Of a stretch of DNA of 64,000 bases, positions 3,831 through 56,204 are shown piece by piece. Where the stretch lies: NCBI GenBank assembly GCA_946482575.1, contig CAMLRZ010000001.1, positions 104,896 through 168,895 of the forward strand. Direction: 5' to 3'. Source of the DNA: an uncultured Candidatus Saccharibacteria bacterium (GTDB lineage: Bacteria > Patescibacteria > Saccharimonadia > Saccharimonadales > UBA4665). Under the pieces are notes generated by a model. That model was not told where the DNA came from. It ran no database searches and was given only the letters and a program-made list of their open reading frames with translations. The position numbers and the translations under genes are program-made. Numbering within the stretch: position 1 is the stretch's first letter; every line of letters starts with the position of its first letter.

Positions 3831-4406
3831 TCAGTTGATCTCGCCGCGCAGGGAGGTGCAGAACTTGTCGAACGTTCCCTTGTCCACGAGCTCCGTGAAG
3901 CCCATGCCTTGCATGAAGATCATCATGCCGTTGTCGTCGCGCACTGCACATGCGCCGCCGAGCGGACCCACCATGACGAGCGTGTTGTCGTCGAGCTGCT
4001 CGTACTTTCCCGGGCCGTCGCCGATGTTCACCGTGTGCTTGTGCCAGCTGGCGTCGCTCATGTAGCCGATGGTGAAGCCGGCGTTGTCGTTGATGGTGTA
4101 GGTGCAGAGAGCCATGCCCTTCGGCTGCAGATTCGGTGTGGTCGTGACGTTCACGCCGAAGGCGCTGGTGGCTTCGGCAGCAGTGACCTGCTTGCAGATG
4201 TAGCCGGCGGGGTAGCTGGTCTTGGAGCCGTCGGTGGGCTTGGAGGTGCTGTCGTCCCCGGGGGTGCTGGTGGCTTCGGCCGAAGAGGCCTCGCTGGCGC
4301 CGTCCGAGGTCGTTGAACCTCCGTCGTCGGGTCCGCAGCCAATGGCGAACACCAGCAGAGCTGCCCCAATCGCGGGCGCAGAGAGAGAAACTGTACGCAA
4401 GCGCAT
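3831..4406 (-). CDS. DUF3558-like secreted lipoprotein (GC-rich unit)
   Basis: It encodes about 191 residues with a signal peptide (MRLRTVSLSAPAIGAALLVF), a lipobox-like AIGC, a Ser/Thr/Asp-rich linker to about residue 75, then a compact Cys-containing domain (YICKQVTAAEATSAFG ... MALCTYTINDN ... GACAVRDDNG). The layout and the opening Cys-x4-5-AAEA-xFG pattern recall DUF3558 lipoproteins, which are mainly actinobacterial. The start is the ATG after AGGAAGAAGG; an in-frame ATG 51 bases further upstream lacks this. Codon use is strongly G/C-ending and the stop is TGA, unlike its neighbours. Transfer from an actinobacterium is plausible. Function unknown. Confidence 0.6.
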   Translation of the reverse strand: MRLRTVSLSAPAIGAALLVFAIGCGPDDGGSTTSDGASEASSAEATSTPGDDSTSKPTDGSKTSYPAGYICKQVTAAEATSAFGVNVTTTPNLQPKGMALCTYTINDNAGFTIGYMSDASWHKHTVNIGDGPGKYEQLDDNTLVMVGPLGGACAVRDDNGMMIFMQGMGFTELVDKGTFDKFCTSLRGEIN

Positions 4407-4581
4407 GATCCTTCTTCCTGAGTAGGTACTTGATGCTTGTGACATCAAAAAGATCACCGGACGGTAATCATATATACAATAACATAATTATCAGATAATC
4501 ACAAGTGCCACTGCGGCACTACATATAGGTGAATACTCCGAAAATTAAGCACTCTACGGTTTGCATGATATAGTGTACGGG

Positions 4582-25893: not shown

Positions 25894-25933
25894 TAACTTC
25901 GGTTATTTTCGCTTTAACCTTGTTTGAAACCAA

Positions 25934-25966
25934 ACACCCGCCTAACGCAATCAGGCGGGTGTTTTT
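25934..25966 (+). terminator. terminator after rplL
   Basis: ACACCCGCCT and AGGCGGGTGT form a perfect 10-bp stem with a T run, ending the rplJL unit. Confidence 0.9.
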
Positions 25967-25998
25967 GTATGCGGAGTAGGGATCAGATGGGAGCGGGA

Positions 25999-26047
25999 GC
26001 GCGGGCGGAGGGAGAAGTCTCGAGGCTTCAAATCCCGCCGCCCGCGC
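25999..26047 (-). terminator. long GC-rich hairpin at the 3' end of a GC-rich gene
   Basis: GCGCGGGCGG (25999-26008) and CCGCCCGCGC (26038-26047) are perfect 10-bp arms, and the loop itself contains GAAG-CTCGAG-CTTC complementarity. There is no T tract on either side. It lies just after the stop of the minus-strand gene. Confidence 0.6.
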
Positions 26048-26064
26048 GTCTAGGGTGCCTGCGA

Positions 26065-26556
26065 TCAGGCAGCTACAACCGGGTTATCGGTGCGGCGCTT
26101 CTTCTTGGGTCGGCGCTGCTTTTTGTCCGGGGCGAGGACGGGCTTCGCGGCCGCTGCAGCAGCCAGGTGGATGGAGTTAAAGAGAGTGTCCACCGAGCAG
26201 CCATCCAGGTTGCCCTCCTGCGTGGTCGATTTTCCGTCAGCGGCGCATTTGCGAGCAGCCTCCTGCAACGGAGCTATTCGGTAGGCCAGCGATTTGCCCA
26301 CCAGCTCTTCGAATCGCGCCTGCAGCCCGTGAATGTCAGACGACGGCTTGACCAGCGTGACGCTCTTCTCCAGGAAATTGCAGACGATGTCAACGCCACC
26401 GTCCAGCAACTCTCGTCGGTAGGTGGAGCCCTCCCGGTTGTCACACACGTCAGCCAGCTTGCGAAGCAGAGCACGCGGGACATCCCAGAGTTTCACCGTG
26501 ACCTTGCACGGCTTATTCGGACCCTCCGGGGCGGCTACCGTTAGCGTTGCGCGCAT
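26065..26556 (-). CDS. hypothetical protein with basic tail (GC-rich unit)
   Basis: It encodes 163 residues, starting MRATLTVAAPEGPNKPCKV after GATGGGAGCG. A mixed alpha/beta body (KLWDVPRALLRKLADVCDN, LLDGGVDIVCNFLEK) is followed by an Ala stretch and a strongly basic tail (KKQRRPKKKRRTDN) suited to nucleic acid or surface binding. It is not recognised. Codon use is G/C-ending and the stop is TGA, unlike rplL upstream. A plus-strand frame covers the same bases but lacks a ribosome site. Confidence 0.55.
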   Translation of the reverse strand: MRATLTVAAPEGPNKPCKVTVKLWDVPRALLRKLADVCDNREGSTYRRELLDGGVDIVCNFLEKSVTLVKPSSDIHGLQARFEELVGKSLAYRIAPLQEAARKCAADGKSTTQEGNLDGCSVDTLFNSIHLAAAAAAKPVLAPDKKQRRPKKKRRTDNPVVAA

Positions 26557-36113: not shown

Positions 36114-36905
36114 TCAGATCTGGGCGGTCCATCGCTTGTAGGCGATCATGCGGTCGTGCAGACCCGGGTCCAGCGTGGCCACCACTTGCGCCATGACGTC
36201 GAGCGTGAACAGCAGGTCCTGCACCGGCGTGTTGATCTTGTCGCCTTCGCGGTGGCCTCGAGAGAACAGAGCCTCACGGGCATCCATGAAGTCAGTCGAC
36301 CACAGCTGACGAGTGGGGTAGGTGATGCCGCTGGGATCACCAGCCAGTTCGCTCAGGCTGTAGCCAGACTCGGCCAGTAGCTGAGCGGCGGGGCTGGCGG
36401 TGCTGGATTCGCCGCACTCGGCTTGACCAGGCGTGTACTTTTCGATCTGACGGAGCCAGAAGCCATCCCGCAGCAGCAGCGTGTGCAGCGGCAGGAGAAG
36501 CGGCGCCACGCTCAGTTCGATGTACTCGAGGGCACAGGAGTTGGCGTCGTAGTACCGAGTGTGATCGTGGATGCAGGACGGCAGCAGGCCGAACAGCTCA
36601 GCGACCCACGTCTCTTGAACCCGGCCACTCGGCCGTTGGGCGGCCGGCAGTGCCTGCACTAGCTGCTTGAACAGCGCGCACATGGTGGGGTTGAAGTAGT
36701 GTGGGTCGAGCTCAAGGCCCGCGATGAATCGCACATCGGCCGAAGTCAGTGCGCCAGTCAGCCACGACGGCCGCACGGAATAACTCCGCGAGCCATTGCG
36801 ACCCATGGGCACGCCCCAGTTCGTACCAGGCTCGATAGTTGCACTGGCTCCATGAGCCATGGATGCAAGCGTCTGTGTCGGCTCCCAGAAGGGCTTGTTG
36901 GTCAC
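36114..36905 (-). CDS. hypothetical protein (GC-rich unit)
   Basis: It encodes about 263 residues from a GTG at 36905; an upstream in-frame ATG at 36974 overlaps the promoter. It is soluble, without a signal peptide. Pieces such as VRFIAGLELDPHYFNPTMCALFKQL and LYLPLHTLLL-like helices are seen but no family is recognised. The upstream region has AAATATTGTATAAT and then a CGAGAT/ATCTCG hairpin in the leader. Codons are G/C-ending and the stop is TGA. Confidence 0.6.
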   Translation of the reverse strand: MTNKPFWEPTQTLASMAHGASATIEPGTNWGVPMGRNGSRSYSVRPSWLTGALTSADVRFIAGLELDPHYFNPTMCALFKQLVQALPAAQRPSGRVQETWVAELFGLLPSCIHDHTRYYDANSCALEYIELSVAPLLLPLHTLLLRDGFWLRQIEKYTPGQAECGESSTASPAAQLLAESGYSLSELAGDPSGITYPTRQLWSTDFMDAREALFSRGHREGDKINTPVQDLLFTLDVMAQVVATLDPGLHDRMIAYKRWTAQI

Positions 36906-36991
36906 GGGGACCTCACTTTGGTGTGTGTCTGCTTGTTGAGGTGCGAGATAAATCTCGTGCGCAGTATTATACAATATTTATTGTTTTAAGT

Positions 36992-42253: not shown

Positions 42254-42633
42254 AGGCTGTCTTGATCTTTTAGGTATTCGTTTACATCTTTGGGATGATG
42301 CATCATGTTGTAGTCCAGATTGCTCATGATCCATAGCGATCCAATTACCAGAATGAGCACGATCAACGTGGCAAATCCCATAATTCCTAGGTTCCAGCGT
42401 TGACCTTTACGACCCACATGCAAGAAGAATACGAGCTGCACAACAAGCTGCACGATTGCTAAGGCAAAGATCCAGCCAATAAGCGCTTCGCGCGTCAAAC
42501 CCAACGGCGTGTTGTTTGCATGACCATCCACTAGCACATATACAATCAGCGTTAGGAAAATCGACAGTACAAAACCCGTAACGTACGTTCGGAGCAGTGC
42601 GTTTTTGGGCTCGGCGTCATAAGCAGGCTTCAT
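42250..42633 (-). CDS. cyoD: Cytochrome bo3 quinol oxidase subunit IV
   Basis: It encodes 127 residues with three membrane spans (about 18-36, 47-70, 81-104). VQLVVQLVFFLHVG is characteristic of CyoD/COX4 prokaryotic subunits. It aids assembly of the CuB site. The start codon overlaps the cyoC stop by one base; it is the last gene of the operon. Confidence 0.9.
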   Translation of the reverse strand: MKPAYDAEPKNALLRTYVTGFVLSIFLTLIVYVLVDGHANNTPLGLTREALIGWIFALAIVQLVVQLVFFLHVGRKGQRWNLGIMGFATLIVLILVIGSLWIMSNLDYNMMHHPKDVNEYLKDQDSL

Positions 42634-43229
42634 TACAGGGCTCCTATCATGTATACCACGCTAAATATAAAGATCCAGACGATATCCAAAAAGTGCCAGA
42701 ACATATTGAGCATTGTTAGTCGACGTGTCATAGCTTGATTTAAAGACTGCGCGCGCAAACGCCAAGTCAGCACGCCCATCCACAACAGGCCTACTGCAAT
42801 GTGTAGCCCGTGGGTTCCCACCAGCGTAAAGTATGCTGACAAAAATCCGCTACGGCGGAAGCTATTACCCTCGGCTGCCAGATTGTGGAACTCAATAAAT
42901 TCCATCGTCAAAAAGGCTACGCCCAGTGCAAACGTAACTGCCAACCACAGCAGCACTTGTCGTTTGCGTTGGCGGCTAAGCGCAATCATGCTCAAGCCAG
43001 CGGTAAAGCTGCTGGTAAGCAAAATCAGTGTTTCGGCCAGTACGTAGGGCAGGCTAAATAGGTCACTTCCTGCAGGGCCGCCGGCAGTGTTTCCTCGCAT
43101 CACGATAAACGTGGCGAACAGCGTAGCAAACAGCACGCAGTCGGTCATTAAATAGACCCAGAAGCCAAATAAGCTGCGGTTGTCGGCTTGCGCACCCTCT
43201 GGTTGATTAGTTGATTCAGTAGCGGCCAT
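42633..43229 (-). CDS. cyoC: Cytochrome bo3 quinol oxidase subunit III
   Basis: It encodes 198 residues with five spans. FGFWVYLMTDCVLFATLFATFIV, LLTSSFTAG and GTHGLHIAVGLLWM are typical COX3/CyoC motifs. It is complete. It overlaps cyoB by one base (TAATG) and so is translationally coupled. Confidence 0.93.
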   Translation of the reverse strand: MAATESTNQPEGAQADNRSLFGFWVYLMTDCVLFATLFATFIVMRGNTAGGPAGSDLFSLPYVLAETLILLTSSFTAGLSMIALSRQRKRQVLLWLAVTFALGVAFLTMEFIEFHNLAAEGNSFRRSGFLSAYFTLVGTHGLHIAVGLLWMGVLTWRLRAQSLNQAMTRRLTMLNMFWHFLDIVWIFIFSVVYMIGAL

Positions 43230-45211
43230 TACCGAGCACCCTCCATGGCTTTTATGGCTTTTACGTCTTTAGCACTAATGACACGCGTCGTATTGTCATC
43301 GGTCGTACGAATAATTATAAGAAGAATTGCAGCAAATACGGCCACGGCACCTAGCCACAGAATATGCCACACCATGGCGAACCCGAACGCCAACGCTGCG
43401 CCCGCAATAAATAAACCGTACGGTGTATTTTTGGGCACTGTAATGTCGGTGTACTTGTTTGACGTAAAGATTTCTTTGCGCTGCTTTTGCTCCCACAATA
43501 CATCGCGTTCAGAGCCGTCTGGAATAATCGCAAAGTTATACTCTGGCGGTGGCGAGGTTGTAGCCCATTCCAGAGTACGGCCATCCCATGGGTCGCCAGT
43601 GGTGTCACGATATTCTTTGCGCTTCCAAATGCTTACGCCTAATTGCAGCACCTGGAGCCCCACACCAATTATGACAAACACGACGCCCACGCCGGCCACA
43701 ATAAACAGAGGCTGCCAACCCATGCTCGCATCGTAGTGGTCCATGCGCCGGGTAGCCCCCATCAAGCCCAAGATGTAGAGCGGTACAAAGGCCAGAATAA
43801 ATCCAATCAGCCAGTTCCAAAAAGCCAGCTTACCCAACGTGTCGTTTAACTTAAAGCCAAACATCTTGGGGAACCAATAGTTGAGGCCAGCAAAGTAGCC
43901 AAATAGGACACCGCTAATAATCATACTGTGGAAGTGCGCCACCAGGAATAAACTGTTGTGCAGCTGAAAGTCTGCCGGCGGAACGGCAAGCAGCACTCCT
44001 GCCACACCACCAATAGTGAACATCACCACAAATCCCATAAACCACAACATCGGCGACGTAAATTGAATGCGCCCGCGGTACATCGTAAACAGCCAGTTAA
44101 AGATTTTCACGCCAGTTGGCACCGCAATAATCATAGTCATAATGCCAAAGAATGCGTTTACATCAGCACCGGCGCCCATCGTAAAGAAGTGGTGCAGCCA
44201 GACCACAAACGACAGAACCACGATGGCCCAAATAGCAGCCACCATACTGGGATAACCGAACAATCGCTTGCGCGAGAAGGTAGGCACAATCTCCGAAAAA
44301 ACACCAAACGCGGGCAGGATCAAAATGTACACTTCGGGGTGACCCCACGCCCAAATCAAGTTCACGTACATCATAGGGTTGCCACCCATGGCAGACGTGA
44401 AAAAGTGCATGCCCAAGCTGCGGTCCAGCGCCAAAAGTGTTAACGTCACCGTAAGAATGGGGAAAGCAAATACCACCAGCGCCATGGTGCCCAATACGCT
44501 CCAAGTAAACATGGGCATCTTCATGAGCGTCATGCCCGGTGCTCGCATTTTAAGAATAGTGGCAATAAAGTTTATACCCGCCAGTAAACTACCGATACCG
44601 GATATCTGCAAACTCCAAATCCAGTAGTCCACGCCAGTACCCGGGCTGTATTGCAGTTCGGACAGCGGCGGATACGCCAGCCAGCCGGCGGCCGAGAATT
44701 CGCCAACTACTAACGACAAATTCACCAGAACCACACCGGCGGCAAACAACCAAAAACTGGTGGCGTTCAAAAAGGGAAAGGCCACGTCGCGTGAGCCAAT
44801 TTGTAGGGGGACTATCAGGTTAATCAGGCCGAACATAAAGCCCATCGCCACAAAGAAAATCATAATTGTGCCGTGCGCCGAGAACACTTGTTGGAAGTGA
44901 TCCGACGACAAAATACCTTGAGCATCGCCGCTCGCAAGCGCCTGTTGGGCGCGCATCATAATAACATCGGCCAAGCCACGCAGAAGCATCAAGCCCGACA
45001 AAATAATGTACATAATGCCAATTTTTTTAGGATCAACACTGGTGAGCCATTCTTTCCAGAGCCACTTCCAGCGCTTAGTTACCGTTAGAAGTACCACGGT
45101 GGCAAGCACTGCGCCGACCACCGTCACCGCACCACCGGCAGTAATCATGTCATGCGGCAGCTCGTCAAGGCTCAATCGTCCCCATAACGCATTAGTAGCA
45201 AACAAGTTCAT
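43229..45211 (-). CDS. cyoB: Cytochrome bo3 quinol oxidase subunit I
   Basis: It encodes 660 residues with about 14-15 spans. All redox centres are visible: FSAHGTIM (low-spin heme His), [17 protein letters not shown] (CuB His, K-channel Glu and the cross-linked Tyr), WLHHFFTMG (CuB His pair) and LVAHFHSMI (heme His residues). It reduces O2 to water while pumping protons. In an organism with a limited respiratory chain it may serve O2 removal or use quinol from the host. It overlaps cyoA by four bases. Confidence 0.97.
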
Positions 45212-46191
45212 GGCATCTCCATTCCGTCGTGTGACATTCCGGGCATATCAGACATGGTATGAGGGGTCGTGGGCCGATCAACATGATGATTATAGTCTGT
45301 TGCAGGCATGTTCATATTCCCCATATATTTCTCTACAATCGTATCATACAAATCATTTTGCACGGTGCCGTAGGTGCGCTGCTTGCTAGTGCCGGGCTCG
45401 GCCAACGTAGCGTAACTAGCCTGAGATAGCTGCGCGCCCCGACCTTTGGTATACGTAGCCCAATGGTCAAACGAAGCCTGCGACATAGCGTTGGCGGTAA
45501 AGGTCATGTCGGCAAAGCCTGAGCCACTAATATTGGAAGAACGGCCTTCGTAAACGCCTGGATGATCCGCAATCAGATGGAGCTTCATGGACATACCTGC
45601 CATGGCGTACACCTGACCACCTAATTGCGGTACCCAAAAAGCATTCATGGGTGCATCAGATGTGATTGTCAGGTCAAGCGGGCGTTCGGTAGGGACTGGC
45701 ATGTAGTTTACCGTAGCGATACCCTGGTCAGGATATATAAACAGCCATTTCCACTGCAGTGCAACCACCTGGACTTTAAGCGGCTTAACGTTTGATTGAA
45801 TAGGGCGATACGGGTCAAGCTCGTGGCTGCTTTGCCACGTAACTACCGACAGCACCAAAATAAGTACCGAAGGAATCGCCCACCAAAGCCCTTCGTAGGT
45901 GCGATTGCGGTCCCAGTTGGGCTGGTACAGCGCCTTAGTATTGCTGGCTCGGTATTTCCAGGCAAAGCTAAACAACATAATGAACACTGGCACCACCACG
46001 ATAACGGATAGGCCAAGTGCAAAAAATATGAGCTGTCGTTCTTTGTTACCGATCTGACCTTTCGGCTCCAACACCGGGATAGGATGCCCTTGTGCGTACC
46101 AAATCATGGCCGCCACAACCAGCACTATAAATATAACCGATGTAATGGCGACTATCCTGGCAAGCGGCAGTTTGCGCAAACGGGGCAACAT
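45208..46191 (-). CDS. cyoA: Cytochrome bo3 quinol oxidase subunit II
   Basis: It encodes 327 residues with an N-terminal span, a second span pair, and the cupredoxin domain ([34 protein letters not shown]). No CuA cysteines exist, so it is a quinol, not a cytochrome c, oxidase. The C-terminus has an unusual His/Met-rich tail ([29 protein letters not shown]) that could bind copper. It follows a DUF1345 gene by two bases and ends in TGA overlapping cyoB. Confidence 0.95.
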
Positions 46192-47019: not shown

Positions 47020-47565
47020 TCAGCTGATGTCAGCCAGGGAGTCGACGCCCAGCGCAACGGCACCGGTCATGACCAGCGAGGGCTTGTCGCCGTTGTTGCC
47101 GTCCATGCGCCAGACACTGACGTCGGACGGGATCTGCTGCAGCCACGCCTTGCTGGCCTCGGGCCACAACAGCGCCTCCCTGGAGAGCACCACGGCCACC
47201 AGCGGGTTGTCGCTGCTGTGCAGGTACTTGTCGATGATCTGGCGGGCGGCCAGCGGCAGTGCGGCGTCGGTGTTCGCGTGGTCGCCCAGCTGCGCGTAGA
47301 GCCTGCAAAGGTCGAACGTGAACTCCGAGCCCTCGTCGATGGGGTAGCGGCCGCGCTCCATCAGGGTCCGGACAGCCGGCACGGCGCTCATGTAGGTGGC
47401 GCTCAGGCAGTCCAGGTCCGCGATGACGCTGCGCAGCATCCACTCGCCCTCGGTCATCCGCACGATCTGCGGCGTGTAGCCACGAGCGACGAACCCGTCG
47501 ATGATGAAATCGAGGTTGTGTCCGTCGTCGTTACCGACGATCAAGACCCTCAAGCCTTCCTGCAT
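47020..47565 (-). CDS. hypothetical protein (GC-rich unit)
   Basis: It encodes 181 residues, opening LRVLIVGNDDGHNLDFIIDGF, which looks like the first strand and loop of a Rossmann-like or receiver-like fold, then mixed helices (LCRLYAQLGDHANTDAALPLAARQIIDKYL) and VSVWRMDGNNGDKPSLVMTG. No full motif set lets me name it. GAGGAGTTGT precedes the ATG. Stop TGA; codons G/C-ending. Confidence 0.6.
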   Translation of the reverse strand: MQEGLRVLIVGNDDGHNLDFIIDGFVARGYTPQIVRMTEGEWMLRSVIADLDCLSATYMSAVPAVRTLMERGRYPIDEGSEFTFDLCRLYAQLGDHANTDAALPLAARQIIDKYLHSSDNPLVAVVLSREALLWPEASKAWLQQIPSDVSVWRMDGNNGDKPSLVMTGAVALGVDSLADIS

Positions 47566-47731: not shown

Positions 47732-50284
47732 CTAATACGACGTGCGAATCCAGGCGGACCCATTCCAGACTTTGACTGGTTTTGTAACCCACGCTGATCC
47801 ATTCCAAATTTTGGCCGGTTTAGCTACAAAGCTACCACTGTCGTACACTTTGGCCTGACCGCCAGTATTTGTACCTATAACAAAATCGGCGGCGCTCTCT
47901 GAATTACCGCCAAACGAAACTGCCGTGCCCGTGGTAGAGCCACTTACCGCCCACGCCTGCCAATGATAACTTGCCCGGTCAATTAAGCTCGTGATAGGCC
48001 CGGACATTACCTGGTACACCAGTGGCGTTTTATTGGTCCAAGACCACAAAGCCGGCGAAGCCGTAAAGTTCAGCGAGTAGGTATCGCCAAACCATGTACC
48101 AGTTGGTGGGCGGCCGCAAGTTACGTAAAATTCAGTACCCAACACCATATACCCAGCGCTGCGCCGAGCGGTGGGCGGCGTAGTGGTAGCTTGAGTGGTC
48201 CACGACGTAAATGTGTTAATGCTGGTATAGCGAGTAGTGTTGTTGACTACCGTTCCGTCATAGCCGCCAAAACACACCAAGCGCTGGTTGACGGTATCCA
48301 AAGCCAGCGTAGCTCCACGCACGCCTAAACCACCAGTAACACCAGTATCTGTCCAGGCACAGTTAACGGTACTGATATCTAAATAGAATAATTGCGAGGT
48401 AAACGTAGTGCTTGAGGCGTCTGTAGCACCGGCATGCACGTATAAGCGATTGTTGGCAGCATCAAACGCAAAACATGATTGCCAAGCCGCCGTAGGCGCT
48501 GTGCCCGTAGGGCTCAGCTGTGTCCATGCCTCAGCACCGAGCGTCAAATCTAATGCCCACATGTCGCCCAACACCGCCGAAGCACTCTGGCCACCCCATA
48601 AAATCATGCGCTGCCGCGTTGCGTCATAGCAGCCGGCCATCAACCATCGTTGCGTAGGTGCTGTGCCCGTAGGCGTTAATTTAGTAGCGTGATACATGCC
48701 AAAATCATCAGCTTTAAGCTGCCACACGTCATTACCGCGCTGGTTAGAGCCCGTTAAACCTCCAAAATAAATAATGCGGTCATTCGCCGAATCGTATACC
48801 GCCAGGCCGCCCTCATTTGGCGGCATGCTCAACGGACCCTTAGCGGCGTATCGCCACTTATTGGCAGTGCGATCGTATGCCCAAACTTCCGAAATATGCT
48901 CACCGGTGGCAATGGTGGTGTCGTCGGCCATGGCACTATAGCCATTAATAAGCACGAACTCATCGCGGGCGTCATTATAGACATAGCCCGGAGCGTCTCG
49001 GGCGCGCAAATAGTCTACTGTAGTCAGACCATACACCGGCGCACTGGCAGAGGTGTTATTTAGATCAAGGCAATAGACGTACTTGTTTGTGCTGTCATAA
49101 CCGTACATGGTGCCAATAACCATCAAATTACGCACCGTATCTACCGCGGCAGCACCACTACTGAATGCCAAAATGCTCTGATTATTTAGATCATTGCTTT
49201 TGATTTGCGTCCAGGCCTCAGTGCCAGCACTCAGCGAAAGCTGTTGTACGTCGTTTCGATTAGTTGCATTAGATCCTCGCCAGCCGCCCATAATCAGGGC
49301 GCGCTGGTTCACACTGTCGTAGCCGATGCTCAGCAATTCACGCCCCACCGGCGTAGTGCCAGTAGGAGACAATTGCGTAAACGTATTGCTTGTTAGGTCG
49401 TACTGCCACGTGTCACTTAGGTACGCTGAACCGCTATAGCCACAGGTAATGACAAGTCGGTCATTGGCCGCATCATAGACCATACCGGTTCCCGAGCGGC
49501 CGGTGGGACTCCCGGCGGCTCCGTTCGCCTTGAGCGTAGTCCAGGTAACGGCTGCGGGAGTGTTTACGTCAAATACGCAGGTTACTAAATCATTAGTACG
49601 GGTCGCGCCCCAACCTCCAAATAGATAAAGATTAGCCGTGCTTGCCGAGACGGGTTTGGCCACCATATGATGCGTAATATACGAACGTGCAGCCGGAGCA
49701 TTGGTTTGCGTTACCGCAGTCCAGCTCTCGCTGCCACGGATACTCACATCAAGTACATTCATCTGGTTGCTGTCGCCAGGAACCGCGCCGCCCCAAATAA
49801 TCATGAACGACTTGTCCACCGACCCAGAGGTAGTCCCGCGTACATAGGCGGCTGCGCCCAGATTGCGGGCAGTAGGAGCCGTGCCGGTCGGTGTTAGCTG
49901 GTGCCAACGACTGTAGCCGCTGTCTGCGCTCAACTCCCACACCTGATTAAAGCGCGTGGTGCCATCATAGCCACCAAATAAAATAAAACGCTCGTTCTTT
50001 TCGTCGTAAATCATGTTGGCGCCGCGCCGCGACGTGGGCAACGTAGCCTCCTTGAGGGGGTATGCCACCGTGGTTACGTTAGCCGTACCGCTAAAGGCAG
50101 TTCCCACTGGCCGAACCTCGGCCCGTAGCTGGACGGCAGTAGCAGGGACGGAAGAGCATATGTCTGCGTCAAGCCACACATCCGTAGTCACCCCGTCGCC
50201 AGCCGTGTCGTCACCTATTGGAATAGGCGTGCGCTGATCGCTTTGGTACTGACCACGCGGCAGTAAGTCTGGATCGCTGTCCAT
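47732..50284 (-). CDS. large kelch-repeat protein with tail-like C-terminus
   Basis: It encodes 850 residues. About 11 kelch-type blades are seen (for example YDEKNERFILFGGYDGTTRFNQVWEL, YDSANDRIIYFGGLTGSNQRGNDVWQL), forming one or two beta propellers. The C-terminus repeats KIWNGSAWVTKPVKVWNGSAW, a pattern common in phage tail proteins. No signal peptide is visible. It follows the tail-fibre-like gene by one base. A role in surface adhesion or a tail-like structure is possible; no other phage genes are present. Confidence 0.75.
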   Translation of the reverse strand: MDSDPDLLPRGQYQSDQRTPIPIGDDTAGDGVTTDVWLDADICSSVPATAVQLRAEVRPVGTAFSGTANVTTVAYPLKEATLPTSRRGANMIYDEKNERFILFGGYDGTTRFNQVWELSADSGYSRWHQLTPTGTAPTARNLGAAAYVRGTTSGSVDKSFMIIWGGAVPGDSNQMNVLDVSIRGSESWTAVTQTNAPAARSYITHHMVAKPVSASTANLYLFGGWGATRTNDLVTCVFDVNTPAAVTWTTLKANGAAGSPTGRSGTGMVYDAANDRLVITCGYSGSAYLSDTWQYDLTSNTFTQLSPTGTTPVGRELLSIGYDSVNQRALIMGGWRGSNATNRNDVQQLSLSAGTEAWTQIKSNDLNNQSILAFSSGAAAVDTVRNLMVIGTMYGYDSTNKYVYCLDLNNTSASAPVYGLTTVDYLRARDAPGYVYNDARDEFVLINGYSAMADDTTIATGEHISEVWAYDRTANKWRYAAKGPLSMPPNEGGLAVYDSANDRIIYFGGLTGSNQRGNDVWQLKADDFGMYHATKLTPTGTAPTQRWLMAGCYDATRQRMILWGGQSASAVLGDMWALDLTLGAEAWTQLSPTGTAPTAAWQSCFAFDAANNRLYVHAGATDASSTTFTSQLFYLDISTVNCAWTDTGVTGGLGVRGATLALDTVNQRLVCFGGYDGTVVNNTTRYTSINTFTSWTTQATTTPPTARRSAGYMVLGTEFYVTCGRPPTGTWFGDTYSLNFTASPALWSWTNKTPLVYQVMSGPITSLIDRASYHWQAWAVSGSTTGTAVSFGGNSESAADFVIGTNTGGQAKVYDSGSFVAKPAKIWNGSAWVTKPVKVWNGSAWIRTSY

Positions 50285-50285
50285 G

Positions 50286-50567
50286 CTAGTTGGTGTCTAT
50301 CCAAATATCACCAACGGCCGGACTGGCCGGAGCCACAGTACCGACAGTTATTTTTGCAAAACCTGACGATTGCGGTACGGAAAGATTGGTTCGAGCGGTA
50401 GCAGCGCTCGCAAGATCACTCAAGTTATTAGATGCTAGCAAGGAGCCAGCGTTAGAGACTGCGCTGGCCGTAAGGGCGCCTGTGGTGGTGTGTGACTGCA
50501 GTAAAAATTCATTGAGCACCGTGCCCCATGTGCCATCATCTGATCCTGCTACCGGTAGTCGCGCCAT
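50286..50567 (-). CDS. tail-fibre-like small protein
   Basis: It encodes 93 residues. The central NNLSDLASAATARTNLSVPQSSG matches the short repeat common in phage tail fibres, and the end VGDIWIDTN is also typical of such proteins. The start follows a GGTAACACC-type region without a strong ribosome site. Its stop is followed after one base by the kelch gene, so the two are co-translated and perhaps form one fibre. Confidence 0.65.
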   Translation of the reverse strand: MARLPVAGSDDGTWGTVLNEFLLQSHTTTGALTASAVSNAGSLLASNNLSDLASAATARTNLSVPQSSGFAKITVGTVAPASPAVGDIWIDTN

Positions 50568-50749
50568 TGGTGTTACCTCGTTACATAAGCATTATAGACA
50601 ATCGGACACAGCTTTGACAATGGCCGCCAAAATTTGCAAAATAAATAAAAATGTTTTATCATATATAAAGCACATCGCCCAGGAGGTGATTTTTTATACT
50701 CCGCGTATGGCGAACTGTGTGCTCGATCCTACCCCTACCGGGAGATTCC

Positions 50750-51361
50750 ATGAACCGTCAGAAATTTGCGCTCCTGTGCATCAGCGCAGTGACCGCCGCC
50801 ACCCTGATGACCGCCTGCAACCCCAGCGCCGACACCTCTGGTGGAACCACCGCCAGCGAATCGGCCTCGGCCCCGACCCAGGGATCGTCCAACGGCAACT
50901 CCAGCATCCCGGACCCGCTGTTCGACGAAGTCGCACCCTGCGACCTGCTGTCGGACGCCGACATGAACAAGCTGTTCAAGACCACCACGTTCAGTCACGA
51001 GGGCGGTGGAGTCGTCGAGGACTTCCACGGCCGTCACTGCCTCTTCACCGGCAGCAACGCCTACATCGACGACGACAACCGCTACAGCCTGGCCGACGTC
51101 TCCATCGACGTCCTGGTCCAGATCGACGACCAGAACGGCACCCTGTGGGCTGCCTGCAAATCCGTCGAGGGCAACTTCGACGTCACCATCCCCGGCACCG
51201 ATGACGCCATCAAGATCGGCGGCGCTGGCGACGGCTGGCTCCAGGCCCAGCGTGGCCGCGTGGTCATCACGGTCCAGGACCACAACCAGGAGATCAAGGA
51301 CGGCGACGCCATCCGCATCATCCAGACCGCGTTCAACAACCTCTCGGCCCACCACGGGTAG
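50750..51361 (+). CDS. DUF3558-like lipoprotein (GC-rich unit)
   Basis: It encodes 203 residues with a signal peptide and lipobox (LLCISAVTAATLMTAC), a Ser/Thr-rich linker to about 60, then DEVAPCDLLSDADMNKLF and HGRHCLFTGSN, which match the two-Cys opening of DUF3558 lipoproteins. The ATG follows CCGGGAG. It shares layout with the lipoprotein at 3.8-4.4 kb but little direct identity. Function is unknown; it should sit on the outer face of the membrane. Confidence 0.65.
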   Translation: MNRQKFALLCISAVTAATLMTACNPSADTSGGTTASESASAPTQGSSNGNSSIPDPLFDEVAPCDLLSDADMNKLFKTTTFSHEGGGVVEDFHGRHCLFTGSNAYIDDDNRYSLADVSIDVLVQIDDQNGTLWAACKSVEGNFDVTIPGTDDAIKIGGAGDGWLQAQRGRVVITVQDHNQEIKDGDAIRIIQTAFNNLSAHHG

Positions 51362-51435
51362 GACACGACGGGGGCGGGGAGCTTCGCTTGCCACTCGGCA
51401 GCCAGCTCCTCGTCCCCACGTCCTCCACGATTATC

Positions 51436-51468
51436 AAAAAAACGACCCCAGCTAGAGGTCGTTTTTTT
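51436..51468. terminator. terminator after the lipoprotein gene
   Basis: AAAACGACC and GGTCGTTTT pair around CCAGCTAGA, with a T7 run on the plus strand. A GC-rich imperfect hairpin (about 51367-51422, GGAGC/GCTCC and GGGG/CCCC) lies between it and the gene. Confidence 0.8.
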
Positions 51469-51610
51469 ATATCGCTTTCGCCGTCTCACGGCTCATCAGC
51501 ATGACTATGCGTTCATGGAGCGATATGATAAGTAGACAAGATAGGGGGCGAAAAAGCACGGAAATCCGCGCGCACCATATCTTCTCTGCCTATCACAGCG
51601 CTCGTTCACC

Positions 51611-52006
51611 TCAGAGGTGAAGCATGGTGTAGAAGAAGCCAGCCAGAACGGCGGCGCCCGCGGTCACGGTGAGGGCCAGGTAGGCCAGCAGCTTGAGGAA
51701 CACACGTCGCTTGAGGTACAGGGCACAGACCACGAGGTCGAAGCCGAACGTCGAAGTGACGAAGGTGACCACGATGGTCAGGGCCGGGAGGCCGTCGATG
51801 CGGAAGAAGTTGACCAGGATCATGGTGAGGACGAAGGCGCCGATGAGAGCGACCGCCTTGGCGGTGAGCAGCATCGTGTTGAGCTTGTCCGAGCCACCGT
51901 GCTTCAGGCCGAAGGCGCTGTAGCGCTCCAATTCCTTGGTGGCCTTGGCGGCGCGAGCGGCAGCAACGAGCTGAGCGGCGGTGGGGGTACCAGCGATCTG
52001 GGACAT
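51611..52006 (-). CDS. small three-span membrane protein (GC-rich unit)
   Basis: It encodes 131 residues. A helical N-terminus (PTAAQLVAAARAAKATKELERYS) precedes three hydrophobic segments (about 48-68, 74-98, 106-130). It is not recognised. The ATG at 52006 lies after GAGAAAGCGAAAAAC. The stop TGA is inside a 17-bp palindrome (TTCACCTCAGAGGTGAA). Its promoter element TATGGTAAAAT resembles those of the divergent ATP-grasp operon and the K+ channel gene. Confidence 0.6.
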   Translation of the reverse strand: MSQIAGTPTAAQLVAAARAAKATKELERYSAFGLKHGGSDKLNTMLLTAKAVALIGAFVLTMILVNFFRIDGLPALTIVVTFVTSTFGFDLVVCALYLKRRVFLKLLAYLALTVTAGAAVLAGFFYTMLHL

Positions 52007-52148
52007 GGTGTTTTTCGCTTTCTCTGAGACGGAAAAATGGGGCTGCAAGTACTCATATATAAGCACTCGAAGCCACATTTTTGCCACGAGAAATCTGTCT
52101 ACTTATCAAGGTGCTTCGGAGCTCCAAAAGCTCATCGAAACAGCTTAT

Positions 52149-52453
52149 ATTTTACCATAAGTATAAAACAATGTCAATGTATGCTTATGCTTAGCGTGGC
52201 GCGGCTTGCGACACAAGTTATGCAAAAACTTATACATATTACAAAACATATGGTATAATATGTACCAAATTGACAGCCATATATCATCCTCTGTTAGTGC
52301 TCTGGTGGGCCAGCTTTAACAGGGGATGATATTTCCTGTCCTCACACTGCATCACACAGCAGCGTAGTACGTTAACAGCATACGACAGAAAGGAGCTCTC
52401 TCAGCAAAGAGGCTCACGTTCAGCAAGAACAACACGACTACCGAGGAGGCTTT
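52149..52453 (+). promoter_or_regulatory. divergent promoter region and structured leader of the ATP-grasp operon
   Basis: The intergenic region 52007-52453 holds TATGGTAAAAT on the minus strand (52149-52159) for the membrane gene and an extended -10 TATGGTATAAT on the plus strand (52249-52259). The plus-strand leader then has ATCATCCTCTGTTA (52283-52296) pairing with TAACAGGGGATGAT (52317-52330), with CTGG/CCAG nested in the loop. About 125 further bases precede the first gene. The hairpin may be a cis-regulator. Confidence 0.65.
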
Positions 52454-52882
52454 GTGCCACCACGCAATAACGGGCGGCGATTCCAGCCTGTCATATCCGG
52501 CTTTGCAGCCGCATGGCTCGTTGGAGCGCCCGCCTTCCTGACCGCCGGCTGCGCCAACGGGCAGGAAACTCAAGACGAAACTCAAGAGGAAGCGTCATAC
52601 ATCTACTGTGTCGACGAGAGTGGCAACATTCTCGACCCGGCATTGTGCGACGACAGCGGCTACTACAACGGCTTCCCGGTGTACTACTGGATCACCACCA
52701 GCAGTCACCCCGTGGGCTATCACGTACCCGCCAGTCAGCGCCGCGGCGCCAGCTACGTCAGGGTCAACGATCCCGCGGCACGAGCCCGCGCAGGTGTTCC
52801 GAGGACCGGACGCATCGGCGGGACCACGGTCAGTCACAGCGGCGGCTTCGGCAACGGCAGCGGTGACTCCGAAGGAGGATGA
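52454..52882 (+). CDS. YgiB/YjfM-like (DUF1190-like) lipoprotein
   Basis: It encodes 142 residues from GTG after CCGAGGAGG. A basic start, a hydrophobic stretch and LTAGC form a lipoprotein signal. The mature part has EEASYIYCVDESGNILDPALCDDSG, a Tyr-rich patch (YYNGFPVYYWIT) and a Gly/Ser-rich tail. This resembles DUF1190 proteins, which precede glutathionylspermidine-synthase-like ligases in ygiBC and yjfMC of E. coli. The assignment rests on layout and context. TGA stop. Confidence 0.6.
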   Translation: MPPRNNGRRFQPVISGFAAAWLVGAPAFLTAGCANGQETQDETQEEASYIYCVDESGNILDPALCDDSGYYNGFPVYYWITTSSHPVGYHVPASQRRGASYVRVNDPAARARAGVPRTGRIGGTTVSHSGGFGNGSGDSEGG

Positions 52883-52885
52883 TCA

Positions 52886-54379
52886 ATGCAGCGAATCGAC
52901 GACGGGCCCGTTCGCGAGAACTGGCGTCAAACCGTCATAGATCAAGGTCTGGTGTACGTCGACACGCACTACCAGGACCCGCTCAACCCCCAGCTCCAGC
53001 ACATGGTTTCCTACTGGCGAGAAGGTCAGTACTACCTGCTGGACGAGTCGGAGGTCACCAAGATCGGTGTCGCTGGCGCCAAGCTGTACCAGGCCCTGAT
53101 CGCCCTCGGCGAAAAGATCCTGGGCTTCGAGCGCTCCGCGCACGACGACCCGCTACACCGTCCCCAGGACTGCTACTTCAAGCGGCTGTCCATTCCGGAG
53201 ACGGCAGTAGGTCCGATCCTGCGATCGTGGCAACTCGACAACGTCGACGAGTCGCCGAACAGGCTGCCGGAACACTATCCGACCATCTACGGTCGGTATG
53301 ACCTGGCTCTGCGGCTCGACGAATTCGGCAAGGTCGCCGGGATCAAGTTGCTGGAATTCAACGCGGATACGCCCACCAGTGTGGTGGAAACGGCCGTCAT
53401 CCAGCCGCTGTGGCTCGAGGCCGTCCAGTCCCACCTGGAGCGCCGGCACGGCAACGTCTTTCAGTGGGCGGGCCTGTACGACTGCATGGTCATCGCCTGG
53501 AAGGAGGAAATCGAAAAGTTCCGCCGCATCACCGGCCGCGGTGTTGACGTGGTTCACGTCGCCTGCACCGAAGTCGAGGAAGAAGGCGAAGACTACATGA
53601 CCATCGGTGTCATCGGCTCCGCGCTCGAAGAGGCTGTTCGCCAGCTCGAACACGAGGGCAAGCCGGGATTCCGGGTCAAGTACATCAGCATGGAGTCGAT
53701 CAACCGCGTACCCACGTCCGACACATCGGACACGTACGTGGTCGGCACCATGGGAGTCAACGGATTCAACACAGCCGAGCAAGGCGTCATTCCCGGGTAC
53801 TTCGTGGACAGCGAAGGTGAGCGCATCAAGTTCATCTTCAAGCTCCACCCCTGGGAGTACTTCCTGAACCCGGTGCACACCAAGCACGGGTTCGGCGAGA
53901 CCGCCATGCACGACCTGATGTCCACGGCTCCCACCACTTGGGTCGAACCCGTGTGGAAGATGATCTGGAGCAACAAGGGCATCCTGGCACTGTTGTGGGA
54001 GCAGTACAAAAACGACCCGGAGATCGGGCCGTACCTGCTCCCCACGTACTTCGCGAACGACCCGGCCATGCCGGCGGACTTCACGAAGAACTGCGCCCAG
54101 AAGCCGCTCCTCGGTCGCGAAGGCGCCAACGTCACGCTCTTCAAGGACGGCAGCGTCCTAGAGCACGGCGGCGGCGTCTACGGCGATGAGGGCTACGTCT
54201 TCCAGCAGCTCTGCCTGCTGCCCGAATTCCACGACCGTAACGAAGGTGTCATGCACCCCGTGATCGGCCTGTGGATGGTTCGGGACGAAGACGTCGACCT
54301 GTGCGTCCGCGAAAGCCCCAACAACGTCACCAACAACATCAGCTACTTCGTACCCCACGCGGTACGGAAGGGACACTGA
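52886..54379 (+). CDS. ygiC: glutathionylspermidine-synthase-like ATP-grasp ligase
   Basis: It encodes 497 residues. The family core is clear: LKLLEFNADTPTSVVETAVIQP in the N-terminal half, and in the ATP-grasp half MSTAPTTWVEPVWKMIWSNKGILALLWE, QKPLLGREGANVTLF and GDEGYVFQQLCLLPEF. These YgiC/YjfC relatives lack the amidase domain of full GspS and may join a peptide or protein carboxylate to an amine; no product is proven for most. It starts three bases after the YgiB-like gene and is followed one base later by DUF350. GC-rich, TGA stop. Confidence 0.88.
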   Translation: MQRIDDGPVRENWRQTVIDQGLVYVDTHYQDPLNPQLQHMVSYWREGQYYLLDESEVTKIGVAGAKLYQALIALGEKILGFERSAHDDPLHRPQDCYFKRLSIPETAVGPILRSWQLDNVDESPNRLPEHYPTIYGRYDLALRLDEFGKVAGIKLLEFNADTPTSVVETAVIQPLWLEAVQSHLERRHGNVFQWAGLYDCMVIAWKEEIEKFRRITGRGVDVVHVACTEVEEEGEDYMTIGVIGSALEEAVRQLEHEGKPGFRVKYISMESINRVPTSDTSDTYVVGTMGVNGFNTAEQGVIPGYFVDSEGERIKFIFKLHPWEYFLNPVHTKHGFGETAMHDLMSTAPTTWVEPVWKMIWSNKGILALLWEQYKNDPEIGPYLLPTYFANDPAMPADFTKNCAQKPLLGREGANVTLFKDGSVLEHGGGVYGDEGYVFQQLCLLPEFHDRNEGVMHPVIGLWMVRDEDVDLCVRESPNNVTNNISYFVPHAVRKGH

Positions 54380-54380
54380 C

Positions 54381-55289
54381 ATGAGGCTCAGCACCCTCGG
54401 AGCGCACCCGCTCAAGGACCTGCGCGACCTCTACGCCGACCTGCCCACCACGGACGACACCAAGCTGGCCCTCGGCAAGCTGGCGATCATCCTGGTGCTG
54501 GTGGCGCTGGCGTGGGTCATCGTCAACATCCTCACCACGGCCTTCAAGGACCACGAGGAAATCGTCGAGCGGCGCACCGTGTCGTTCATCGTGATCCGCG
54601 CCGCCATGCTGGCGGGGCAGGTCGTCGCCACCATCCCGCTGGTGTCCGCCAAGTCCGACGACACCAAGTTGGACCTGCTGTGGCTCGGCCTCGGCGGACT
54701 CAGCATCATCGCGGCGTTCAACCTGCTGCGGCCGGTGCTCGACAAGCTGCTGTACGGCAAGCTGCTCAGCGCCAACGCCCTTCGGGAGGCCAGCGTGGCC
54801 ACCGCGATCGTGCAGACGGCATTCTACCTGGCCATCGGCCTGATCATCAGCGGAGCCTTCACCGGCACCGCGCCGAGCACCTCCGTGGCCATCCGGGCAA
54901 CACTGCTGTTCACAGGCCTCGGCCTGGTCACCCTGCTGATCGCGTACCTACTGGCGGGCAAGTTCTACGGCATGCGCCAGGCGGTCAAGAGCGACAGCAA
55001 CTGCGCCGCGGCTCTGATCCTCGGCTCGATCGTCCTCGGTCTCGGCTTCATGCTGCAGGCGGCCATCGCCGGCAACTTCAACGGCTGGACCAACGGCCTG
55101 ATCGGCTTCGGTCTCTACGCCATCATCGGCATCGTCGTGCTCGTGGCTCTCGTGCCGCTGCTCGACCGCCTGGCCCTGCCCAAGCTCAGCATCACCCAGC
55201 TGATCAAGGAGCACATCTGGCAGCCGGCCATCCTCACCGCGACGGTCGTGGTGTTCGTGGCCATGGCCATGTCCTCGATCGACGTCTGA
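54381..55289 (+). CDS. double DUF350 membrane protein (YjfL-like)
   Basis: It encodes 302 residues with eight spans in two similar halves: LAIILVLVALAWVIVNILTTAF ... and AFYLAIGLIISGAFTG ..., each with four helices as in DUF350. The ATG overlaps the region of the ligase stop (one-base gap). DUF350 proteins are regularly found with YjfC-type ligases and were noted in amidoligase gene neighbourhoods. It may present or sense the modified product in the membrane. Stop TGA. Confidence 0.8.
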   Translation: MRLSTLGAHPLKDLRDLYADLPTTDDTKLALGKLAIILVLVALAWVIVNILTTAFKDHEEIVERRTVSFIVIRAAMLAGQVVATIPLVSAKSDDTKLDLLWLGLGGLSIIAAFNLLRPVLDKLLYGKLLSANALREASVATAIVQTAFYLAIGLIISGAFTGTAPSTSVAIRATLLFTGLGLVTLLIAYLLAGKFYGMRQAVKSDSNCAAALILGSIVLGLGFMLQAAIAGNFNGWTNGLIGFGLYAIIGIVVLVALVPLLDRLALPKLSITQLIKEHIWQPAILTATVVVFVAMAMSSIDV

Positions 55290-55341
55290 CGCACCGCCTT
55301 CGGGCATCGTTCTGTCGTACACGCTTCGGCGTACTCTCTGT

Positions 55342-55411
55342 GTGATGTGGTGAACGGCCGTCCGCTTCTTCGACTCCTTCGGGAATCAAGCAAGCGGGCG
55401 GCCATCATCAC
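55342..55411 (+). terminator. 70-bp hairpin after the DUF350 gene
   Basis: GTGATG/CATCAC outer arms enclose GGCCGTCCGCTT pairing with AAGCGGGCGGCC (one wobble). A smaller ACGC-TTCG-GCGT hairpin with a UUCG tetraloop lies just before it (about 55321-55332). Neither is followed by T. Confidence 0.65.
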
Positions 55412-55548
55412 TACTACCTATGCACTAATTTTCAAACTGTTTGAAAACTGATGTATGAGTAGTAGCGGTGTGACAAGTAAGTGCGAGTAAGAGAGGGTGG
55501 GTTGGCGCGGCAGCCATGTGCTTCTGGTGGTGGCCGCCGCGCCCCGCG

Positions 55549-56043
55549 TCAGGATTCGCCTCGTTTTGCAATCTCCCGCAAGATCTCTTCGTTGGTTTTG
55601 AACTCAGGTAGCGTCAGCAGGGCCGGCGGCAGATTTTCGATGTGACCACCCGTGGCCAGGATGTCGCGGATGGCGTGCAGCAGAATCGTTTGCTCTTCGG
55701 CTCGCACCTTGAGCAGTTCCTGCTCGGCGTGGCTGAAGATGTCCTTGTTGATGAGCACCATGGCCGTGACTTGACCACTGAAGCAGGCCAGCAGTACAAA
55801 GTCGGTGGCCATGGCCACGATGGCGACGAGCCGACCGGCGTTGGATACGGGAGAGATGTCCCCGTAGCCGACAGTGAAGCCGGTAACCCAGCCCCACCAC
55901 ATAGAGTCAGAGAACGAGCGGTGTTCCACGTACATGAACAGCAGGACGAAGACGGTGTTCATGCTGAGCCCAATGATGAGCAGCCACATCAGCTTGTTCA
56001 GCAGGTAGTGCACCCGCTTCTTAAGCCATTCCCAACGCGACAT
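55549..56043 (-). CDS. two-span potassium channel
   Basis: It encodes 164 residues. Two hydrophobic spans (about 20-43 and 75-100) flank a pore helix and the K+ selectivity filter GFTVGYGDISP. A cytoplasmic helical tail of ~65 residues (EEQTILLHAIRDILATG) has no RCK domain. The ATG at 56043 follows GGGGAGC. It converges on the ATP-grasp operon and has a TATGGTATGCT promoter like its neighbours. A hairpin (55504-55511 with 55536-55543) follows the stop TGA. GC-rich. Confidence 0.85.
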   Translation of the reverse strand: MSRWEWLKKRVHYLLNKLMWLLIIGLSMNTVFVLLFMYVEHRSFSDSMWWGWVTGFTVGYGDISPVSNAGRLVAIVAMATDFVLLACFSGQVTAMVLINKDIFSHAEQELLKVRAEEQTILLHAIRDILATGGHIENLPPALLTLPEFKTNEEILREIAKRGES

Positions 56044-56204
56044 ATGCGTCGCTCCCCTCAGATTCGGCACTTACTTGTCGAGTTCGCGAGAAGTCTCTCA
56101 GCGATTAGCATACCATACCACAAAACACAGAAAATTGCCAGATAACGTCTCGCTTTTAATTTTGGTAATTTAAGCGCATCATAAGCATGTAAGGAGCCAC
56201 TATT

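What the first reader, a model, noticed from the sequence alone, without database searches (positions are those of the whole stretch)
51611..56043. Candidate membrane-stress system: YgiB-like, ATP-grasp ligase, DUF350, K+ channel and a small membrane protein
Genes at 52454, 52886 and 54381 are tightly coupled. A K+ channel converges on them, and a three-span protein diverges from them. All three promoters share TATGGTAnnnT (52149-52159 minus, 52249-52259 plus, 56108-56118 minus). ATP-grasp/DUF350/channel neighbourhoods were noted in analyses of amidoligase families, but their product is unknown. Here a reduced genome keeps a complete set with an added membrane protein and a structured leader, so it may be a minimal version of the system.
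Basis: partly seen in the sequence, partly recalled or inferred. Interest (0 to 1): 0.85.

Follow-up and report, generated by a model that had tools for sequence, protein, structure and literature searches.

The report
Borrowed peptide–polyamine ligase gene cassette
A small bacterium of the Saccharibacteria carries a known three-gene membrane module that it probably borrowed from Actinobacteria, and comparing its relatives suggests that the module's enzyme may attach a small amine to the conserved Gly-Gly or Gly-Ser end of the neighbouring lipoprotein.

Summary
The genes are real. 52454, 52886 and 54381 form a tight operon: lipoprotein, GSP_synth ATP-grasp ligase with conserved catalytic residues, and a double-DUF350 membrane protein. 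A K+ channel converges and a small membrane protein diverges. The window is from a Saccharimonadales genome; the block has actinobacteria-like GC3 and the ligase nests among actinobacterial sequences, so it was probably acquired. The module is a known kind: E. coli ygiBC and yjfIJKLMC, and published PSP-related operons. Lipoprotein-ligase-DUF350 recurs in this order in 32 of 80 related loci. The five-gene set was not found elsewhere: a channel is near 2 of 80, the small protein near none. The shared promoter element is an extended -10 and not significant. From my comparison: the lipoprotein ends in Gly-Gly or Gly-Ser in 65 of 71 tails (window included), in E. coli YgiB and YjfM, and in 56 of 62 ligase-linked Pseudomonadota DUF1190 proteins, against 1 of 6 unlinked ones and 19 of 873 other ORFs. 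I infer that this C-terminus is the ligase's substrate, giving a polyamine amide. That is unproven, and the key 2023 paper on YgiC/YjfC was not held.

The parts
52149..52177 (-). Promoter-like site of the divergent small membrane protein: TTGACA-17-TAAAAT with extended -10
51611..52006 (-). Small membrane protein, 131 aa, four helices predicted (the last three look membrane-spanning); lineage-specific, membership in the module not supported by neighbours elsewhere
   Evidence: low-confidence model, pLDDT 62.5
52231..52259 (+). Promoter-like site of the operon: TATACA-17-TATAAT with extended -10
52281..52332 (+). Strong hairpin in the operon's presumed 5' leader
   Evidence: inverted repeat I7; z -4.57
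52454..52882 (+). Lipoprotein (LTAGC lipobox, read by eye) of YgiB/DUF1190 type, 142 aa, with GGFG motif and C-terminal Gly-Gly: proposed ligase substrate
52886..54379 (+). GSP_synth-family ATP-grasp C-N ligase (YgiC/YjfC kin), catalytic residues conserved (R137 D139 E157 N159 K364 K406 R411 R475)
54381..55289 (+). Double-DUF350 (YjfL-type) membrane protein, 302 aa, model with 8 long helices
   Evidence: pLDDT 86.9
55406..55470 (.). Long palindrome (75% complementary arms, strong hairpin) between the convergent DUF350 and channel genes, possibly a bidirectional terminator
   Evidence: z -4.65
55549..56043 (-). K+ channel (Ion_trans_2), convergent with the operon; likely start ATG 56043 (ORF open from GTG 56070)
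56107..56117 (-). Extended -10-like site before the channel gene

Best explanation
52454-55289 is a three-gene lipoprotein / ATP-grasp ligase / DUF350 module of the known ygiBC-yjfLMC kind, probably acquired by a Saccharimonadales bacterium from an actinobacterium-like donor as part of a GC-rich block (about 50.7-56.1 kb). Proposed mechanism: the ligase, presumed cytosolic, activates the C-terminal Gly carboxylate of the lipoprotein precursor as an acyl phosphate, as GspS does with the Gly of glutathione (recalled), and couples it to a polyamine such as spermidine. The exported, lipid-anchored protein then bears a cationic amide tail at the membrane, where it works with the DUF350 protein and, in this genome, perhaps the K+ channel, in envelope or ion homeostasis. 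Shown here: the genes, their order, ligase catalytic residues, C-terminal conservation and its link to the ligase. Established elsewhere: E. coli homologues are reported as peptide-spermidine ligases (title of Pederick 2023 as cited in papers seen; RefSeq names). Inferred: which peptide is the substrate, the amine used here, the order of modification and export, and the physiological role.
For: Module: a lipoprotein-like ORF ends within 400 nt upstream of the ligase in 67 of 80 loci, and lipoprotein-ligase-DUF350 in that order in 32 of 80; E. coli ygiB-ygiC and yjfI-J-K-L-M-C; published operons. Ligase: 8 of 8 GspS positions identical (their roles are recalled). C-terminus: G-G or G-S in 65 of 71 tails including the window's, Gly at -2 in 66 of 71 with tail background 0.30; 28 of 33 after thinning; YgiB ...MGG, YjfM ...WGG; 26 of 29 tail proteins found at 30 Pseudomonadota ligase loci and 11 of 12 at Actinomycetota loci; 56 of 62 ligase-linked DUF1190 proteins, among them 7 of 7 that lie 2.7-3.8 kb away and 4 of 5 encoded downstream of the ligase. 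Controls: 19 of 873 other ORFs in the 80 loci, and 3 of 45 with Gly/Ser-rich tails, end so; 1 of 6 unlinked DUF1190 proteins does. Transfer: GC3 0.72-0.95 against 0.42-0.63 for 46 of 50 other ORFs listed, ribosomal L10 0.54; ligase nests among actinobacterial sequences, SH-aLRT 98-99.
Against: No substrate was tested. The C-terminus is not universal: SS, AS, AT, GT, GE or HA ends occur, among them all 3 viral contigs. One unlinked DUF1190 protein (G134) ends GS; the other five unlinked ones are weak matches, three from one genome, so they may differ for other reasons. A lipoprotein must be exported, while the ligase has no signal that I tested for and is presumed cytosolic. The window lipoprotein is not a Pfam DUF1190 match. 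The nearest ligase relatives (P0002-P0011 and P0013 in the tree) are unnamed metagenome proteins, so donor and age of transfer are uncertain. Whether this cell has spermidine is unknown.
Confidence: 0.5

Rival explanations
1. Same module, but the ligase makes a free peptide-polyamine metabolite (glutathionylspermidine-like) from a small peptide; the lipoprotein is a sensor or metal-binding partner and its Gly-rich end serves binding or processing.
For: GSP_synth homology and sequence matches to GspS and trypanothione synthetase, which act on small peptides (reactions recalled); PMC11237479 calls the DUF1190 protein a metal-chelating lipoprotein.
Against: Does not predict a C-terminal Gly-Gly/Gly-Ser kept at variable distance (7-23 residues) from the GG[F]G motif, nor its absence in 5 of 6 unlinked DUF1190 proteins.
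Confidence: 0.3
2. The C-terminal Gly tail is a recognition or sorting signal (for example for the DUF350 protein), and the ligase modifies something else.
For: The tail is conserved together with the whole locus, and 35 of 80 loci also carry DUF350 beside the ligase.
Against: The tail persists where no DUF350 lies beside the ligase, e.g. E. coli ygiBC and loci L002-L012; a DUF350 elsewhere in those genomes is not excluded (one search found one in 3 of 3 of those tested).
Confidence: 0.12
3. Acquired cargo of no importance: the block is a recent actinobacterial insertion (or a chimeric assembly) and is not a working system in this cell.
For: Sharp GC3 contrast; the small neighbour protein has no counterpart in the 80 loci.
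Against: All frames open, catalytic residues conserved, AT-rich intergenic DNA with sigma70-like promoter sites and a stable leader hairpin; relatives at 65-67% identity in metagenomes, and the identical protein is listed from other sources with a longest contig of 7,761 bases (P0001), which does not by itself exclude a chimera.
Confidence: 0.08

Closest known systems
E. coli yjfI-yjfJ-yjfK-yjfL-yjfM-yjfC and ygiB-ygiC (NC_000913.3)
   Same: Ligase of the same family, DUF350 protein (yjf operon), lipobox protein with RGG[FY]G motif and C-terminal Gly-Gly directly upstream of the ligase.
   Different: No PspA-family, DUF2170 or DUF2491 match among the 10 ORFs scanned between 47.7 and 59.8 kb; DUF350 is doubled and downstream; ligase has insertions and is 497 aa against 386-387.
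PSP-linked operons with GSP-synthetase-like ATP-grasp, K+ channel, YjfL DUF350, DUF1190 lipoprotein, DUF2491 (PMC11237479, section 19 read)
   Same: ATP-grasp ligase, channel, DUF350 and a DUF1190-like lipoprotein all lie within 52.4-56.1 kb.
   Different: No PspA/CesT-Tir dyad, band-7, DUF4247/DUF2617 or AdoMet decarboxylase match among the 10 ORFs scanned; an extra small membrane protein.
Actinobacterial lipoprotein-ligase-DUF350 cassettes (Dactylosporangium L001, L013; Streptosporangiaceae, Nocardiaceae, Thermomonosporaceae loci)
   Same: Same gene order; Dactylosporangium also has a double DUF350 in frames of 306-330 aa.
   Different: No channel filter motif and no small membrane protein found in those loci; window ligase carries an insertion shared with unnamed metagenome sequences P0002-P0007.
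Glutathionylspermidine synthetase/amidase Gss (E. coli b2988; PDB 2io7)
   Same: R316 D318 E330 N332 K498 K533 R538 R598 conserved.
   Different: No amidase domain found; T446, W571 and Q582 positions differ.

Membership tests
GSP_synth (PF03738) ATP-grasp ligases, YgiC/YjfC branch | Pfam GSP_synth match over the curated cut-off | tested here: met
   256.8 bits against 29.3; best solved relatives YgiC 7uk8 and YjfC 7uk6
GSP_synth (PF03738) ATP-grasp ligases, YgiC/YjfC branch | Catalytic residues of GspS conserved | tested here: met
   8 of 8 positions identical; which residues are catalytic is recalled
GSP_synth (PF03738) ATP-grasp ligases, YgiC/YjfC branch | Peptide-polyamine ligase activity | not testable with these tools
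   needs enzymology
Glutathionylspermidine synthetase/amidase (Gss) | N-terminal amidase domain fused to the synthetase | tested here: not met
   497 aa, GSP_synth only at E 0.1; NCBIfam PRK10507 65 bits against a cut-off of 882
DUF1190 / YgiB family | Pfam PF06693 match | tested here: not met
   no Pfam or NCBIfam family at E 0.1
DUF1190 / YgiB family | Profile-level similarity to YgiB/YjfM | tested here: inconclusive
   hhalign 97.8% in global mode over 148 columns, but local match only 39 columns around the lipobox
DUF1190 / YgiB family | Anchor, GG[FYLI]G motif, small C-terminal residue, next to the ligase (features that I abstracted here) | tested here: met
DUF350 / YjfL family | Pfam PF03994 match | tested here: met
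   87 bits against 26, two stretches
Two-span K+ channels (Ion_trans_2) | PF07885 match with selectivity filter | tested here: met
   46.1 bits against 22.5, TVGYGD
Phage-shock (PSP)-linked polyamine operon | PspA family gene or a stated replacement beside the operon | tested here: not met
   none among the 10 ORFs scanned between 47.7 and 59.8 kb; the rest of the genome is not held

The most novel reading that the evidence does not exclude
YgiB/YjfM-type lipoproteins and their actinobacterial and Saccharibacterial counterparts are a widespread class of C-terminally tagged proteins: a Gly-Gly or Gly-Ser end, analogous in logic to ubiquitin or Pup, is activated by the neighbouring ATP-grasp ligase and joined to a polyamine or another membrane amine, giving a surface lipoprotein with an amide-capped cationic tail.
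Probability: 0.4. Interest if true: 0.85.

Novelty: new member of a known kind. Interest (0 to 1): 0.6.

Why it matters
In the texts that I could see, the physiological substrate of the YgiC/YjfC ligases is not named. A conserved C-terminal Gly-Gly/Gly-Ser on the protein encoded next door in E. coli, Actinobacteria and a Saccharibacterium makes one candidate testable by mass spectrometry in a laboratory strain. If true, it would be a bacterial post-translational modification of lipoproteins by polyamines, linking polyamines to the cell envelope. The window adds that a Saccharimonadales bacterium, of a lineage with reduced genomes, has probably acquired the module from Actinobacteria, the group to which known Saccharibacteria hosts belong (recalled).

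Tried and rejected

Rows dropped before counts: L086 (same genome as L017) and a second lipoprotein-like ORF of L019, ligases under 410 aa, L100 and L104, most of the lower-ranked hits, and the one fungal hit (P0105, 33% identity). In one search tail proteins were picked by the GG[FYLIW]G motif and position, not by their end; L102, L103, L105 and L112 were completed, L129 by eye, and L097 stayed without one.
Full report
Check of the observation. ORFs 52454-52882, 52886-54379 and 54381-55289 lie on the + strand with gaps of 3 and 1 nt. Pfam gives GSP_synth (4.9e-76) for the second and DUF350 in two stretches (1.5e-24) for the third; the first has no Pfam or NCBIfam family but shows an LTAGC lipobox. 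The convergent 55549-56070 (-) is an Ion_trans_2 channel (4.5e-12). The divergent small membrane protein probably starts at ATG 52006: 3 of 8 relatives begin at the aligned Met and 3 more a few residues before it. The common promoter element is the extended -10 of sigma70 promoters; three copies in the window are not significant (10 of 100 shuffles). The leader hairpin 52281-52332 is strong (z -4.57) and so is a palindrome between the convergent genes, 55406-55470 (z -4.65).

Where the window comes from. No whole genome is held. Of the 120 rows listed for the window's CysS, 9 name an organism, all Saccharimonadales, Saccharibacteria or Patescibacteria, the best at 88%. The six genes 50717-56070 have GC3 of 0.72-0.95; of the 50 other ORFs that I listed 46 lie between 0.42 and 0.63, and ribosomal L10 is 0.54. 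The exceptions are 3831-4457 (0.82), 47020-47565 (0.92), 36114-36974 (0.74) and 25924-26544 (0.64); some of the listed ORFs may not be genes. In a quick maximum-likelihood tree of 69 ligases (midpoint root, short search) the window sits with unnamed metagenome sequences inside sets of 21, 32 and 45 rows whose named members are all Actinobacteria, SH-aLRT 98-99 (the rows left out are told under Tried and rejected). I read this as acquisition from an actinobacterium-like donor; the unnamed neighbours could themselves be Saccharibacteria, so the date of transfer is open.

The module elsewhere. In 67 of these 80 a lipoprotein-like ORF ends within 400 nt upstream of the ligase (all but one within 110 nt), in 35 a DUF350 gene is beside it (32 downstream, 3 upstream), and all 32 of the former have the full order lipoprotein-ligase-DUF350. 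The lipoprotein profile was grown iteratively and is Gly-rich, so position beside the ligase is the independent evidence. Only L001 and L013 (Dactylosporangium) share the double DUF350. A channel filter motif was found near 2 of 80, the small membrane protein near none; 8 relatives of it were found in a search of 5.8 billion proteins. E. coli has ygiB-ygiC and yjfI-J-K-L-M-C, the ligases being named peptide--spermidine ligase by RefSeq. Section 19 of PMC11237479 (read) describes operons with the same ATP-grasp type, a K+ channel, YjfL/DUF350 and a DUF1190 lipoprotein. So the module is known; I found the five-gene set only here, without having been able to survey other Patescibacteria.

The ligase. 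E. coli GspS residues R316, D318, E330, N332, K498, K533, R538 and R598, which I recall as catalytic or substrate-binding, are identical in the window protein (R137, D139, E157, N159, K364, K406, R411, R475) and in YgiC and YjfC, while T446, W571 and Q582 differ. It should be an active C-N ligase acting on a carboxylate, and it is not a glutathionylspermidine synthetase/amidase (no amidase domain).

The C-terminus of the lipoprotein. The window protein ends ...SGGFGNGSGDSEGG. Among 71 tails (window, 67 genome loci, 3 viral loci) 34 end GG and 31 GS; the other six end SS (3), HA (2) and GE (1). Gly is at -2 in 66 of 71 although Gly makes up 0.30 of the tail; 70 of 71 have GG[FLI]G. After thinning by a simple alignment score (cut 0.55 over the last 90 residues), 28 of 33 still end GG or GS; the end lies 7-23 residues after the motif. 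YgiB ends ...SMGG and YjfM ...HWGG, both after RGG[FY]G. Draws across the phyla of G040 (Sphingomonas) and G001 (Dactylosporangium), not based on similarity to this window: 38 of 200 and 12 of 198 genomes have the ligase family. At the 30 Pseudomonadota loci returned (the best-scoring ones) a tail protein was found for 29 and 26 end GG/GS, the others AS, SS, SS (three of the 29 lie about 3 kb away or downstream); at 12 Actinomycetota loci 11 end GG/GS and one SS (L132 is the same gene as L001).

Control by linkage. In 398 genomes of the same phylum as G040, PF06693 (DUF1190) has 68 matches and PF03738 hits 91 genomes. Of the 68, 62 lie within 6 kb of a ligase gene: 51 end GG, 5 GS, 4 SS, 1 GT, 1 AT; 59 have the motif. 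Seven of these lie 2.7-3.8 kb away and all end GG; five are encoded downstream of the ligase, four ending GG/GS and one GT. Of the 6 unlinked, one ends GS (G134, no ligase found in that genome) and five show neither the tail nor the motif in their last 45 residues; those five are weak matches (E 1e-12 to 1e-4), three of them from one genome, so this control is suggestive only. Five genomes with only the long Gss-type enzyme (G083, G111, G123, G159, G189) have no DUF1190 match. In the 80 loci only 19 of 873 other gene-like ORFs end GG/GS, and 3 of 45 with Gly/Ser-rich tails (ORFs chosen mechanically, some spurious).

Interpretation. GSP-type ligases activate the C-terminal Gly of a peptide and join it to spermidine (recalled); E. 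coli YgiC and YjfC are reported as peptide-spermidine ligases (Pederick 2023: only its title in reference lists and one phrase in PMC12568646 seen; the paper itself is not held). A small C-terminal residue kept on the protein encoded next to the ligase, in Pseudomonadota, Actinomycetota and a Saccharibacterium, fits that protein being the peptide substrate. A eukaryotic parallel: PMC12270671 (passages read) reports that ubiquitin and ubiquitin-like proteins can be conjugated to spermidine. What the modified lipoprotein does is inferred: with DUF350 (8 long helices in the model, pLDDT 86.9, no known fold found) and channels nearby in some genomes, a role in membrane or ion homeostasis under stress seems most likely.

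Verdict. A probably acquired member of a known module in an unusual host; ordinary as a gene set, but its relatives give a sharp, testable substrate hypothesis. I could not exclude that this hypothesis is already in print.

Noticed in passing
window 50717-51361 (+) and 3831-4457 (-): Two GC3-rich (0.89, 0.82) lipoprotein-like genes with sub-threshold DUF3558 matches, a family that I recall as actinobacterial; possible further acquired genes.
   Followed up: partly
window 47020-47565 (-): ORF with GC3 0.92 and no Pfam family, next to the cytochrome oxidase genes; looks acquired too.
   Followed up: partly
window 42633-46191 (-): COX3, COX1 and COX2 matches of a quinol/cytochrome oxidase in a Saccharimonadales genome.
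   Followed up: partly
window 17393-19792 (+): 799-aa protein with a thymidylate kinase match at the N-terminus and two Thy1 (ThyX) stretches: an unusual fusion.
   Followed up: no
window 47732-50284 (-): 850-aa kelch-repeat protein followed by a small ORF 50286-50567 without Pfam match, beside the GC-rich block.
   Followed up: no
L081, L082, L083: Three viral contigs carry the lipoprotein and ligase pair; their lipoproteins end HA, HA and SS instead of GG/GS.
   Followed up: partly
L020, L026, L027, L034, L048, L072, L080 (Micromonospora): Lipoproteins that keep little more than a lipobox-like stretch, an Asp run and an RGGFG...GG tail, suggesting that the tail is the essential part.
   Followed up: partly
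L155, L157, L158 (genome G234): Three weak DUF1190 matches far from the ligase gene, without the GGFG motif or the Gly tail.
   Followed up: yes
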